Assembly (NCBI RefSeq): GCF_024972735.1
Contig: NZ_CP087723.1
Location: forward strand, 310,001 to 374,000
Reading direction: 5' to 3'
DNA length: 64,000 bases
Source: Halalkaliarchaeum sp. AArc-CO
GTDB lineage: Archaea > Halobacteriota > Halobacteria > Halobacteriales > Haloferacaceae
Shown: piece after piece, positions 2,058-6,412 of the stretch
How positions within the stretch are numbered: position 1 is the first letter of the stretch
How the letters are laid out: each line of letters starts with the position of its first letter
Position numbers and translations under genes: made by a program
The notes under the pieces: model-generated
Seen by the model: the letters and a program-made list of their open reading frames with translations, nothing else
Told to the model about the DNA's origin: nothing
Databases searched by the model: none

Positions 2058-2342
2058 CTAGTCGATGTGGCCTTCGCGGCGGAGCTGGTCGGCGTCCTCG
2101 CCGGTGTAGCGCCACTCGATGTTGGCCTTCTCGTCTTGCCAGTCCCACGGTTCGGCGACGACGACGTCGTCCACCTCGATCCACGTTCGATACTTCATCC
2201 GGCCGGGAATACGCCCGAGGCGCTCTTTCCCGTCGGCACATCGCAGCTGTACGTGGTTGCCGCCGAGGTGGTCCGTCACCACGGCGAAAACCTCATCCGA
2301 GTTGGGCATCCGGAGGTTCCGGCGCCCGTTTTCCTGAGTCAC
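2058..2342 (-). CDS. eif1a: Translation initiation factor aIF-1A
   Basis: This is the archaeal eIF1A/IF1 homologue, an OB-fold protein that binds the A site of the small ribosomal subunit and helps initiator tRNA recruitment and scanning. The 94-residue protein is the usual size. It carries the family hallmarks [12 protein letters not shown] near residue 11, the [12 protein letters not shown] segment around 44-55 and the acidic [10 protein letters not shown] stretch. The ATG at 2342 sits about 25 nt downstream of a TATA-like element, so the mRNA is probably leaderless. Confidence 0.96.
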
Positions 2343-2373: not shown

Positions 2374-2443
2374 GTCCGACTGATCCGACACGGTCCTTTA
2401 TAGTTACCCGTTACCGAGGCACACGTCACTACAGATCTTAGAA

Positions 2444-3346
2444 TTACCAATGGATAGCAATTGGATCAATGATGATCGATCTGCCCTCTAGAATGAAGTC
2501 TTCAGGTTGAATCTCGGGAAGTTTGAATTCACTCTCATTTTGTTCGTCCATAGAGTCTAGAACTTTTGCAACTAACTTCGCTCGGATGTCTGCGCTTTCA
2601 CTGTCGGAGGAGACGGAATCTATCATCCGAAGAGCTTCGATCAAGTCCCAAATTGCTTCTTCATTGTTGATTTCTCTCACACGTCCGAAGATGATGTACT
2701 CATTTTGGCTCCGGAATTCCCGGTCCGGATCGACCCACATATTTTGAGTATCAATCGTTGTAGCTACACTCCATTGGCCAACTGGAGCATCTACTTCCAA
2801 TCCTATCCACCCATGGTAAAGTAGTTGGTAAAATTGCTCTACTTGGCCAAGTTGGGATGTACTTTGTAGTAATTGTGCAAGGAATCCACTTCCCTGTGGC
2901 GCGTCAGAGGTAGCTTCAACAATATACTGGAGCGCACTCAGAAGCGGATAAAGTGGGTCCGGTTTGCATGAACCTTCAACTCTAACAAGTTCCCCTAACT
3001 TTACACTATTGACATTATTGTCACTATTCAGATCTGTGATTTCTGGTGGGGTCCTTTCGTCCTCAAAGGAATCAATAAGAATAGAATAACGATACTGGTC
3101 GTTCACCCGTTTACTAACTTCTGATAGTTCACGTTCTGTTGCGGAGGTTGAGCGAGCGTGGCTACCACCGATACTGAGTAAATTTCCGAGGTCAATTCCT
3201 GCTTTACCTTCCGATTCGGAACCTTCTTCTTCACTCTCTTCAGCAACTTCACGGACTGTTTCTGGAACGGTCATGAACATCGATGCTAGAAGTGAGTTAA
3301 CTGCTCCTGAGTCAAGATAAACAAACTGACGGATATCGGGTTCCAT
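2444..3346 (-). CDS. AT-rich DUF6414-like protein, probably acquired
   Basis: This is a 300-residue soluble protein opening MEPDIRQFVYLDSGAVNSLL. The YLD..AVNSLLAS start, the acidic spacer at ~35-48, the GIDLG...GGSHARS patch at ~50-65 and the VNDQYRYSILI segment at ~85 resemble the DUF6414 family of bacteria and archaea. That assignment is from memory and not certain. No catalytic motif or membrane segment is evident. Base composition is plainly different from everything around it: AT-rich, with many AAT, ATT, TTT and AGA codons. The ATG at 3346 has an AT-rich TATA-like stretch ~25-35 nt upstream. It lies between aif1A and topA and is followed on its upstream side by hairpin-rich non-coding DNA. 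This suggests horizontal acquisition. The function is unknown. Confidence 0.75.
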   Translation of the reverse strand: MEPDIRQFVYLDSGAVNSLLASMFMTVPETVREVAEESEEEGSESEGKAGIDLGNLLSIGGSHARSTSATERELSEVSKRVNDQYRYSILIDSFEDERTPPEITDLNSDNNVNSVKLGELVRVEGSCKPDPLYPLLSALQYIVEATSDAPQGSGFLAQLLQSTSQLGQVEQFYQLLYHGWIGLEVDAPVGQWSVATTIDTQNMWVDPDREFRSQNEYIIFGRVREINNEEAIWDLIEALRMIDSVSSDSESADIRAKLVAKVLDSMDEQNESEFKLPEIQPEDFILEGRSIIIDPIAIHW

Positions 3347-3368
3347 AGCCAGAAAATCTATTCACCCA

Positions 3369-3384
3369 CAAATAAATTTAATCC
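3369..3384 (-). promoter_or_regulatory. TATA-like element of the DUF6414-like gene
   Basis: The minus strand reads GATTAAATTTATTTG about 25-35 nt before the ATG at 3346. The setting is AT-rich throughout, so the exact box is uncertain. Confidence 0.4.
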
Positions 3385-3478
3385 AGAAAAGGTCATTGGG
3401 AAGATATAGGACGTATTGGTCCTGCGTGATCGAAATAAAACTGTAGGTCGAGCATCCGCGAGCGAAGCGAGGCGTTTC

Positions 3479-3520
3479 ACCGATAGCGAGGGCCGCAGGC
3501 CCGAGCTATCGGTTTTTTTG
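3479..3520 (+). terminator. Strong hairpin with T-tract
   Basis: An ACCGATAGC...GCTATCGGT stem with an inner GGGCC/GGCCC stem is followed at once by seven T residues. On the plus strand this has the form of an intrinsic terminator, although no plus-strand gene ends here. The element may have come with the adjacent AT-rich gene. Confidence 0.6.
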
Positions 3521-3527
3521 GTCTGCT

Positions 3528-3588
3528 CACGGAGCGGGGCTCCGTGGCATCCAGCAAATCCGTCGGATTTGCGCGAGAGCTTTTTTGG
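3528..3588. repeat. Two further inverted repeats ending in a T-run
   Basis: CACGGAGC-GGG-GCTCCGTG is followed by GCAAATCC-GTC-GGATTTGC, both perfect stems with three-base loops, and then a six-T run. They extend the hairpin series that starts at ~3479. Positions may be off by a base. Confidence 0.55.
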
Positions 3589-3603
3589 CGGGGGTCGAGG
3601 AGC

Positions 3604-3684
3604 GCGAGGTTCGACCGAATGCGAGAACCTCGGAGACGCGAACGGGGAGAGCGAGGTTCGAGCGAATGCGAGAACCTCGGAGAC
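3604..3684. repeat. 34-bp direct repeat, two copies
   Basis: The unit GCGAGGTTCGA(C/G)CGAATGCG, continuing AGAACCTCGGAGAC, occurs at ~3604-3637 and ~3651-3684, differing at one base. Each copy contains an imperfect inverted repeat (GAGGTTCG / CGAGAACCTC). The role is unknown; such repeats are common near acquired genes in haloarchaea. Confidence 0.6.
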
Positions 3685-3727
3685 CCGTGAGCGAAGCGCC
3701 CGAGGCCCCGTTAAAAAAGGTCGTGGT

Positions 3728-6328
3728 TCAGTCCGCCTTGGCCTGCCAGTCCCGCACCGTGTCGGGCCCGACGCCGTCGACCTGGTTGGCCAGTTCGTCC
3801 GGCTCAGCCTCCTTCAGCGAGCCGACGTCCTCGACGCCGGCCTCCCGGAGTTTCTCGGCGGTCTTCTCGCCGATCCCGTCGATAACTTCGAGCTCCGACC
3901 CTTCCCTCCGGGCCTGGTACTCCCGGTAGTTGCAGATCGGACACCCCAACTCCCACGGCTCATCACCCGAGTGGACCCGGAGGTGGGGCAGATCGTGTTC
4001 GTCGCAGCGCTCGTCGGTCACCTCGATTTCGCCCCGGCGTGGCAGCGGCAGCGAGTAGTCGCAGTCCGGATACCGCGTGCAGCCGACCAGCCGAGAGCCG
4101 TTGCGGAGCTGCTTGATCGCCAGCTCTCCACCCTCGCTTTCGCCGCAGGCTGGACAGTTGCCGATCACCTCGTCGTCGGCCTCCTCGGCCGCGTCGGCCT
4201 TGCACTGCGGACAGCCGTGGACGAACGTCTTCCGCCCGGCGAGCATCTTCACGTGGTGGAGGTCGTGCTCCTCGCAGGTCTCCTCCAGGATCAGCGGCTT
4301 CCCCGTGGAGGGCAGTGGCAGCGTGTACTCGCAGTCGGGGTAGCCGTCGCAGCCGACGAAGTAGGAGCCGTATCTCGATTTTCGGACCAGCAGCTGGGAG
4401 TCACACTCCGGACATGGTCCCAGCGTCTTGTCGGCCTTCAGCGACTCCTGGAGGTGGTTCCCGATCTCCTCCCTGGAGTCTGCAAGCTCCTCGAAAATCC
4501 GCTCGAGTAGCTCCTTCGACTCGTCGGTCACCTCGTCGTACTCCTTCTCGCCGCCCGCGATCGCCGCCATGTCCCGTTCCAGCTGGGCGGTCATCCCCTC
4601 GCTGACGATCGGTTCGGCGAACTTCTCTGCCGCCTCGACGACCGCCTCCGCGAGCCGCGTCGGCCGGGGGGGATCGTTCTCGACGTAGCCGCGATCGTAC
4701 AGCTTCTCGATCGTGTGGTGTCTCGTTGCCTTCGTCCCGATCCCGAGCTCCTCCATCTTCTCGATGAGCCGCGACTGGCCGTAGCGACGGGGCGGCTGGG
4801 TTTCCTTCGCCTCAAGCCGGCGTTCGCCGAGGTCGAGCCGTTCCCCCGCTTCGACGTCCGGCACGATCGTCTCGCTCGAGGACACGTACGGATACACCTC
4901 GTGATAGCCCGGTTCGAGCAGGCGCTTGCCGTTGGCCTTCAGACGGAGCCCGCCGTCAGCGAGGAGCTCCGGCATCCCCGTCGTGCCGTCGGGATCCCGC
5001 AGCGCCGCCCGGGGATCGGCCTCGCCGGCGATCCGGCTCGCCTCGCCGTCGGCGAGCGCGACGACCCGGAGGTGTTCCCAGGTCGCCGCCGGCGCACAGG
5101 TCGCGAAGAAGCGCCGAACGACCAGTTCGAAGATCTCCCACTCGTCGTCGGACAGCTCCGAGGCGTCCGGCAGCTCCCCGGTCGGGTGGATCGGCGGGTG
5201 GTCGGTCGTCTCCTCGTCGCCCTCGGTCGGCTCGATCGACTCCTGTGTGAGAAGCGATTCCGCGTCGTCGCCGAACCGCGTTCCACGGAACGCCTCGAGT
5301 AGTTCCCGGGGATCGAGGTCGTCGGGATAGACCGTGTTGTCCGTCCGGGGATAGCTGACGAACCCGGCGGTGTAGAGGTCCTCCGCCAGCGACATCGCGC
5401 GCTGTGCGGAGTACCCCAGCGATCCGGCCGCGCGGATGAACTGGGTGGTGTTGAACGGGGCCGGCGGGTCGTCTCTCCGGGTCCGGCGGTCGACGTCGTC
5501 CACCTCGGCGCCGTCGGCCGCCCGCAGCGCCGCCGCGACCGTCTCGGCGGTCGGACCGTCCCAGATCCGTTCGGCCTCGGTGCCGTCGACGTCCGCATAG
5601 AAGTACTGTGCCTCGAAGGCGCCGCCGGCACCGGCGTCCCGCTTGGACAGCTCCCCGAACAGCTCCCAGTAGGATTCGGGGTCGAACGCCTGGATCTCCC
5701 GTTCCCGGTCGACGAGCAGCTTGAGCGTCGGCCCCTGGACCCGACCCACCGAAATGAAATCGTCGCCGAGCTGGCGCGCCGAAAGCGACAGGAACCGGGT
5801 GAGCGCCGCGCCCCACACCAGGTCGATCGCCTGTCTGGCCTCGCCGGCGGCAGCCAGGTCGAAGTCGATCTCGTCGGGATCGTCGAAGGCGTCTTTCACT
5901 TCACGGTCGGTGATCGAGGAGAACCGCACCCGGTCGACCGGCGCCTCGTCGTTCACCTCGCGGACGAGCTCGTAGGCTTCCTTCCCGATGAGTTCGCCCT
6001 CCCGGTCGTAGTCGGTCGCGATGATCACGCGAGAGGCGTTGCGCGCCAGTCGGCGGAGCGCGGCGACGATGTTCTCCTGGGTCGGTTCGGTCACGATCGG
6101 CGCGTCGACCAGCTCGACCGGCTCGACGTCCCGCCAGTCGTTGTACTCCGGCGGGAAGTCGACGCCGACGACGTGGCCCGAGAGCCCGATGCAGCGCTTG
6201 CCGCCCCAGCGATAGACGTTGACGCCGTTGCGTCGCTCGGTTTCCGCGGAGCCGCCGCTGAGGATCTCGGCGATCCGGCGGGCGGCGTTTTCCTTCTCGG
6301 TGACGATCAGCTCGGGACCCCGACTCAT
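3728..6328 (-). CDS. topA: DNA topoisomerase I (type IA)
   Basis: Type IA topoisomerases relax negative supercoils by single-strand cleavage and passage. The protein is 866 aa from the ATG at 6328 (MSRGPELIVTEK). The Toprim domain has the acidic triad in ATDYDREGE (D106, D108, E110). The catalytic tyrosine is Y326 in the SYPRTDNTVYP motif. The C-terminus carries several four-cysteine zinc ribbons from ~650 onward (CPEC...C...C type) and ends in a helix-hairpin-helix region at ~815-866 (DGIGEKTAEKL, DGVGPDTVRDW). An in-frame extension to 6403 was rejected because family similarity begins at MSRGPEL and a TATA-like box sits ~26 nt upstream of 6328. Confidence 0.96.
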   Translation of the reverse strand: MSRGPELIVTEKENAARRIAEILSGGSAETERRNGVNVYRWGGKRCIGLSGHVVGVDFPPEYNDWRDVEPVELVDAPIVTEPTQENIVAALRRLARNASRVIIATDYDREGELIGKEAYELVREVNDEAPVDRVRFSSITDREVKDAFDDPDEIDFDLAAAGEARQAIDLVWGAALTRFLSLSARQLGDDFISVGRVQGPTLKLLVDREREIQAFDPESYWELFGELSKRDAGAGGAFEAQYFYADVDGTEAERIWDGPTAETVAAALRAADGAEVDDVDRRTRRDDPPAPFNTTQFIRAAGSLGYSAQRAMSLAEDLYTAGFVSYPRTDNTVYPDDLDPRELLEAFRGTRFGDDAESLLTQESIEPTEGDEETTDHPPIHPTGELPDASELSDDEWEIFELVVRRFFATCAPAATWEHLRVVALADGEASRIAGEADPRAALRDPDGTTGMPELLADGGLRLKANGKRLLEPGYHEVYPYVSSSETIVPDVEAGERLDLGERRLEAKETQPPRRYGQSRLIEKMEELGIGTKATRHHTIEKLYDRGYVENDPPRPTRLAEAVVEAAEKFAEPIVSEGMTAQLERDMAAIAGGEKEYDEVTDESKELLERIFEELADSREEIGNHLQESLKADKTLGPCPECDSQLLVRKSRYGSYFVGCDGYPDCEYTLPLPSTGKPLILEETCEEHDLHHVKMLAGRKTFVHGCPQCKADAAEEADDEVIGNCPACGESEGGELAIKQLRNGSRLVGCTRYPDCDYSLPLPRRGEIEVTDERCDEHDLPHLRVHSGDEPWELGCPICNYREYQARREGSELEVIDGIGEKTAEKLREAGVEDVGSLKEAEPDELANQVDGVGPDTVRDWQAKAD

Positions 6329-6352
6329 CGCCCGCCCATAGGCCGGTTGCTC

Positions 6353-6363
6353 GCCTAAAGCTT
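6353..6363 (-). promoter_or_regulatory. TATA-like promoter element of topA
   Basis: The minus strand reads AAGCTTTAGGCG about 26 nt upstream of the topA ATG at 6328, which fits a leaderless transcript and supports that start. Confidence 0.45.
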
Positions 6364-6412
6364 TCGTGCTGGCTGGCGGACGGTCCGTACCGCGGAAACC
6401 CACCGATTGCGG

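What the first reader, a model, noticed from the sequence alone, without database searches (positions are those of the whole stretch)
2444..3727. AT-rich DUF6414-like gene set between core genes and followed by a hairpin cluster
The gene's composition and codon use clearly differ from the GC-rich genes on both sides (aif1A and topA), which are normally stable core genes. Its upstream flank carries three strong hairpins, two T-runs and a 34-bp direct repeat. Together these suggest a recently acquired unit, possibly with its own boundaries. The protein family is uncharacterised; similar acquired singletons in prokaryotes often act in defence.
Basis: partly seen in the sequence, partly recalled or inferred. 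Interest (0 to 1): 0.6.

Follow-up and report, generated by a model that had tools for sequence, protein, structure and literature searches.

The report
Orphan antiviral-family gene beside topA
A salt-loving archaeon carries, between two essential genes, a foreign-looking gene from the same protein family as a tested anti-phage protein (DolA) but without its usual partner, and the striking hairpins next to it are probably just the transcription stop signal of the neighbouring gene.

Summary
ORF 2444-3346 (-) is a full-length DUF6414 protein (Pfam PF19952, 1.3e-34). It lies about 9 SD below the other window genes in GC, between topA and aif1A. The family is sporadic: 17 of 170 genomes of the family and 23 of 393 of the phylum pass the Pfam cut-off. 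The only congener held has different genes (P-type ATPase, UspA) in this slot. So the gene is accessory and very probably acquired, but no empty site was found. Its nearest relatives are AT-rich too, so AT-richness does not date the acquisition.

The hairpins are not boundaries of the insert. They belong to a genus-wide element that often starts 1-7 bp after a stop codon and keeps its position at three orthologous genes. It is best read as the terminator-like 3' region of topA.

Function: an authentic DolA of the Dodola anti-phage system also passes the DUF6414 cut-off, so DUF6414 includes DolA. Many relatives lie in defence islands, and one clade, shared with bacteria, is paired with a Cdc48-type AAA ATPase. 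The window protein belongs to a separate haloarchaeal clade without an ATPase. Best reading: a stand-alone, defence-type accessory protein, possibly with a nucleic-acid-binding OB fold. This is inferred, not shown; it is not a Dodola system.

The parts
2444..3346 (-). Stand-alone DUF6414 (DolA-superfamily) gene, 300 aa, GC 44%
   Evidence: Pfam PF19952 1.3e-34, positions 1-282/283; composition z about -9; tree position
3371..3381 (-). Putative TATA box of the DUF6414 gene (TTAAATTTATT), about 25-35 nt upstream of the start codon
   Evidence: Read directly from the sequence; inference, not tested
3479..3519 (.). Hairpin (arms 3479-3494 / 3498-3513) followed by a T-run; first part of the dispersed element
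   Evidence: further copies at G000 83.8k, 2858.9k, 2772.9k
3520..3586 (.). Two-hairpin segment (CACGGAGC..GCTCCGTG, GCAAATCC..GGATTTGC) followed by a T-run; most conserved part of the dispersed element
3596..3687 (.). Direct repeat pair (3596-3640, 3643-3687; 91%), related to the 70-bp unit repeated 14.7 times at G000:C2 about 378.9-379.9k
3703..3723 (-). CGACCTTTTTTAACGGGG motif starting 5 bp after the topA stop codon: T-tract plus long stem, terminator-like
3728..6403 (-). topA (right flank; 89% DNA identity to the congener starting at its stop codon, 3727)
2058..2342 (-). aif1A (left flank; congener identity 88% up to base 2402)

Best explanation
The insert is base 2403-3726. It holds one horizontally acquired accessory gene, transcribed on its own, that encodes a stand-alone member of the DUF6414/DolA protein superfamily. 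The slot between topA and aif1A is variable within the genus. The protein most likely serves in antiviral defence. Its predicted fold has an OB-like beta-barrel core built from the central strands and the conserved C-terminal strand (..DPIAIHW), capped by the N-terminal 'R-Q/E-F-V-Y-L-D ... SLLAS' element. By analogy with the ATPase-paired members it would sense a nucleic acid or nucleoprotein made by an invader and trigger an effector step. Lacking a linked ATPase, it would act alone or use a host AAA ATPase. The hairpin cluster is a separate thing: the terminator-like 3' region of topA. Shown: the family, the composition, the sporadic distribution, the variable slot, the relation of the family to DolA, and the genus-wide hairpin family. 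Inferred: the defence role (about 0.6), the OB fold (about 0.5), nucleic-acid sensing (about 0.3), terminator function (about 0.65).
For: Pfam DUF6414 full length. 17 of 170 and 23 of 393 genomes over the cut-off. The congener carries a P-type ATPase, a 68-aa ORF and UspA in the slot, with flanks 88-89% identical. A genuine DolA next to a DolB (1.7e-44 and 1.7e-94 to PADLOC) passes the PF19952 cut-off at 30.8 bits, and one haloarchaeal DUF6414 matches the DolA model at 1.9e-5. Neighbourhoods of relatives: DUF1156 MTase, DUF262 and HNH, DrmD/HmaA-like helicase, HmaC-like, DrmMI-like and LmuB genes, KwaB, a TIR protein matching PDC-S66, an integrase. Intact Cdc48-type AAA gene beside the paired clade. 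The tree separates paired and stand-alone clades. The window model (pLDDT 71, pTM 0.68) aligns mainly to OB folds: CST/Ten1, AsnRS anticodon domain, RPA, MCM (Z 5-7.1). Dodola protects against phages in B. subtilis, S. thermophilus and L. cremoris (PMC11514479, PMC12322248).
Against: No defence model matches the window protein itself. Its own neighbours (cysK, aif1A, topA) are core genes, not a defence island. The direct comparison with DolA aligns only the N-terminal motif. OB-fold scores are under Z 8, where chance arrangements occur, and the second model (pLDDT 56) shows OB hits only weakly (Z 4-5) among helical noise. No true empty site was seen. The neighbour survey has no random control.
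Confidence: 0.55

Rival explanations
1. An orphaned, decaying remnant of a two-gene DUF6414-AAA (Dodola-like) module that lost its ATPase after transfer.
For: Paired forms exist in the same family of haloarchaea, and a degraded duplicate pair is seen on a Halorussus plasmid (L105).
Against: The window protein belongs to a separate stand-alone clade; all ATPase-paired members in the tree form one clade with 100/98 support. The ORF is intact and covers the full domain.
Confidence: 0.12
2. An ordinary host regulatory or stress gene, for example an OB-fold nucleic-acid-binding protein, unrelated to defence.
For: Core-gene neighbours; the OB-like model is compatible with many roles.
Against: Sporadic distribution, extreme composition, absence from the slot in the congener and from its whole genome, defence and integrase neighbourhoods of relatives, and DolA in the same Pfam family.
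Confidence: 0.2
3. The gene and the hairpin cluster moved together as one mobile unit whose ends are the repeats.
For: In the congener both are missing from this interval; copies of the hairpin element are dispersed in the genome.
Against: The genome has only one DUF6414 gene, so the other hairpin copies have none beside them. The end motif often starts 1-7 bp after other stop codons, and three copies keep orthologous positions in the congener. No matching copy lies on the aif1A side of the gene.
Confidence: 0.12

Closest known systems
Dodola anti-phage system (DolA + ClpB-like DolB)
   Same: A genuine DolA passes the same Pfam family cut-off, PF19952, and shares the N-terminal 'vYfD...' element.
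   Different: The window protein does not match the PADLOC DolA model, is 300 aa against 258 model positions, and has no DolB or any ATPase next to it.
DUF6414 + Cdc48-type AAA ATPase pairs of haloarchaea, Actinomycetota and Myxococcota (found here; the pair is not named in PADLOC-DB 2.0.0)
   Same: Same Pfam family, same N- and C-terminal motifs (YLD, IAIYW).
   Different: Those form one clade, have a longer DUF6414 protein (mostly about 410-460 aa) and an upstream AAA gene. The window gene has neither.
Haloarchaeal transcription terminators (T-stretch, some with hairpins; Haloferax volcanii, PMC7237163)
   Same: The element next to the gene begins with a T-tract just after the topA stop codon and carries stable hairpins.
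   Different: Here the hairpins are long, repeated and shared across loci of one genus, with 69-70 bp tandem arrays at some sites; termination itself was not tested.

Membership tests
DUF6414 (PF19952) | Score over Pfam's curated cut-off along the full domain | tested here: met
   120.6 bits against 25, positions 1-282 of 283
Dodola system | Match of the protein to the PADLOC DolA model | tested here: not met
   No PADLOC match at E up to 10
Dodola system | Adjacent dolB (ClpB-like AAA ATPase) gene | tested here: not met
   Neighbours are topA, aif1A and cysK
Dodola system | Protection against phages or viruses | not testable with these tools
   Needs virus challenge
DUF6414-Cdc48 AAA pair | AAA ATPase gene directly upstream, and placement in the paired clade | tested here: not met
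   No ATPase gene adjacent; window lies outside the 100/98 paired clade
OB-fold protein | OB barrel in the structure | tested here: inconclusive
   Predicted model aligns mainly to OB folds at Z 5-7.1, below the Z 8 caution line; second homologue model of low confidence
Haloarchaeal terminator (hairpin flank) | T-tract directly after a stop codon, recurring at gene 3' ends | tested here: met
   10 of 18 motif places examined lie 1-7 bp after a same-strand stop codon, three pairs at orthologous positions in the congener
Haloarchaeal terminator (hairpin flank) | Transcript 3' ends at the element | not testable with these tools
   Needs term-seq or a reporter assay

The most novel reading that the evidence does not exclude
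Haloarchaea carry an undescribed single-gene antiviral protein family (the stand-alone DUF6414 clade), related to a likewise unnamed two-gene defence system (Cdc48-type AAA ATPase plus DUF6414) that is shared by archaea, Actinomycetota and Myxococcota and is distinct from Dodola in its ATPase type and gene order.
Probability: 0.35. Interest if true: 0.6.

Novelty: new variant of a known kind. Interest (0 to 1): 0.4.

Why it matters
It links an uncharacterised Pfam family to a tested anti-phage protein and shows that the family occurs in archaea in two arrangements: alone, and paired with a Cdc48-type ATPase, the pair being shared with bacteria. That gives concrete, testable candidates in haloarchaea; [quoted passage not shown] It also warns that conspicuous hairpin clusters next to AT-rich genes in these genomes can be terminator-like elements of the neighbour rather than insertion boundaries.

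Tried and rejected
Empty-site search: only one congener is held, and its slot holds other genes. A G000 homologue of the congener's P-type ATPase lies elsewhere at 71% identity, so polarity stays open. Viral contigs and phages: no relatives. Plasmids: 4 haloarchaeal records. PDB by sequence: none. PDB by Foldseek: nothing significant. Viral structures: nothing convincing. The 15-member alignment was too diverse for pattern search. PADLOC DolA model in the window's phylum: none in 197 genomes. Considered and dropped: the C-terminal I-Y-W as a proteasome-docking HbYX tail. The window protein ends in I-H-W, the strand is predicted as well-ordered core, and (from general knowledge) the motif persists in Myxococcota, which usually lack 20S proteasomes. 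No shared partner gene was found among the nearest stand-alone relatives apart from an integrase near two of them. No paper in the library names DUF6414.

Full report
What is there. ORF 2444-3346 on the minus strand encodes 300 aa and matches Pfam DUF6414 (PF19952) over its whole length, E 1.3e-34. It sits between topA (3728-6403, -) and aif1A (2058-2342, -). Its GC is 0.444, against a mean of 0.673 (sd 0.025) for 46 other genes of the window; z is -9.0 for GC, -9.7 for GC3 and -8.6 for codon adaptation, and no other gene of the window comes near it. The flank 3347-3727 holds three compact hairpins, two T-runs and a 45-nt direct repeat, and folds better than all 100 shuffles, z -4.2.

Is it acquired? 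The family is sporadic: 17 of 170 genomes of the same family and 23 of 393 of the phylum pass the Pfam cut-off. In the only congener held, DNA identity of 88-89% runs up to window base 2402 and resumes at 3727, at the topA stop codon; between them lie a P-type ATPase, a 68-aa ORF and a UspA gene instead. So the interval is variable within the genus. This is not an empty site, and the direction of change cannot be told. In other genera looked at, aif1A and topA are not neighbours. The AT-rich composition is shared by the nearest stand-alone relatives (gene 0.38-0.46, surroundings 0.54-0.68), so it does not prove a recent event.

The hairpins. A search of the own genome with 3347-3727 gave 37 matches: good copies of the hairpin part at 83.8k and 2858.9k, partial ones at 2772.9k, 240.1k and 543.1k, and tandem arrays of 70 bp x 14.7 at about 378.9k and 69 bp x 7 at about 638.2k. 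The element is nearly confined to the genus. Its end motif CGACCTTTTTTAACGGGGGCC occurs 8 times in G000 and 11 times in the congener at up to 3 mismatches, and never in the reversed control. In 10 of 18 places examined it starts 1-7 bp after a stop codon on the same strand. Three such genes are orthologous in the two genomes: a 603-aa ABCE1-like gene, a 291/289-aa gene, and a 493-aa prolyl-tRNA synthetase-like gene (names from general knowledge of the sequences). For topA the distance is 5 bp. Haloarchaeal termination uses T-stretches, and a hairpin has been shown to terminate too (PMC7237163). The cluster is therefore best read as the terminator-like 3' region of topA, not as an end of the insert. 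The congener's topA lacks it, so a joint move with the gene is not fully excluded.

What the protein is. Relatives fall into two arrangements. In one, a DUF6414 protein of mostly about 410-460 aa follows a gene of about 400-430 aa that is a Cdc48-type AAA ATPase with intact Walker motifs. This pair occurs in haloarchaea and in Amycolatopsis, a Polyangiaceae and another Myxococcota genome. In the other, DUF6414 stands alone. In the tree all paired members form one clade (100/98), bacterial ones included, and the window protein lies in a haloarchaeal stand-alone clade (five rows, 100/99) with Haloarcula sp. JP-L23, Halorubrum sp. Atlit-26R, G043 and SW_8_68_21.

Link to defence. The PADLOC DolA model found a DolA-DolB pair in a genome of the phylum of the Amycolatopsis locus (1.7e-44 and 1.7e-94). 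That DolA passes the PF19952 cut-off with 30.8 bits. So the Pfam family includes DolA of Dodola, a two-gene system with shown anti-phage activity and unknown mechanism (PMC11514479, PMC12322248). A direct profile comparison between the window alignment and this one DolA aligns only the N-terminal motif, so the relation is distant. Neighbours of haloarchaeal DUF6414 genes include DUF1156 methyltransferase, DUF262 and HNH genes, DrmD/HmaA-, HmaC-, DrmMI- and LmuB-like proteins, KwaB, a TIR protein matching PDC-S66 and an integrase. There was no random control for this survey. The window gene itself has only core neighbours.

Fold. AlphaFold2 on 12 sequences gave pLDDT 71 and pTM 0.68. Foldseek found nothing significant, but the second look aligned residues about 101-300 mainly to OB folds: CST/Ten1, asparaginyl-tRNA synthetase anticodon domain, RPA, MCM, Z up to 7.1. 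Z under 8 can be chance. A bacterial paired homologue gave a poor model (55.8) with a similar order of elements and OB hits only at Z 4-5.

Mechanism proposed. An OB-like, probably nucleic-acid-binding protein that senses an invader. In paired systems the AAA ATPase would power the response; in the stand-alone clade the protein acts alone or borrows a host AAA ATPase. Only family, distribution, context and clade are shown; the rest is inference.

Verdict. A real, accessory, defence-type gene in a variable slot; a new variant (stand-alone DolA-superfamily protein in haloarchaea), not a member of Dodola. The hairpins are a separate, topA-linked feature.

Noticed in passing
G000:C2 378.9-379.9k (L060 4896-5925): A 70-bp hairpin unit repeated 14.7 times at 99% identity, starting soon after the stop codon of a 291-aa gene; a related 69-bp x 7 array follows the prolyl-tRNA synthetase-like gene at 638k (L064 4198-4679), and a related array follows its orthologue in the congener (L126).
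   Followed up: partly
L068/L103, L070, L071, L072, L073, L074, L076, L102, L106, L107, L108, L109, L114: A two-gene module, Cdc48-type AAA ATPase then DUF6414, shared by haloarchaea, Actinomycetota and Myxococcota and in several cases in defence islands; the DUF6414 partners of this kind that were scanned match no PADLOC model.
   Followed up: partly
L072 and L080: Two genomes share flanking defence-island genes at 54-90% identity, yet carry DUF6414 genes of different clades (ATPase-paired in L072, stand-alone in L080), as if the island exchanges this module.
   Followed up: no
L102 and L105 (Halorussus aquaticus plasmid NZ_CP100402.1): The AAA-DUF6414 pair and its surroundings occur twice on the plasmid; in the second copy both genes are split into shorter reading frames.
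   Followed up: no
L058 (congener G004), aif1A-topA interval: The slot holds a P-type cation ATPase, a 68-aa ORF and a UspA-like gene, so this gap between core genes takes different cargo in the two members of the genus.
   Followed up: partly
L081 9070-11341: A stand-alone DUF6414 gene lies directly next to a convergent gene matching Kiwa KwaB (Pfam 4.5e-19).
   Followed up: no
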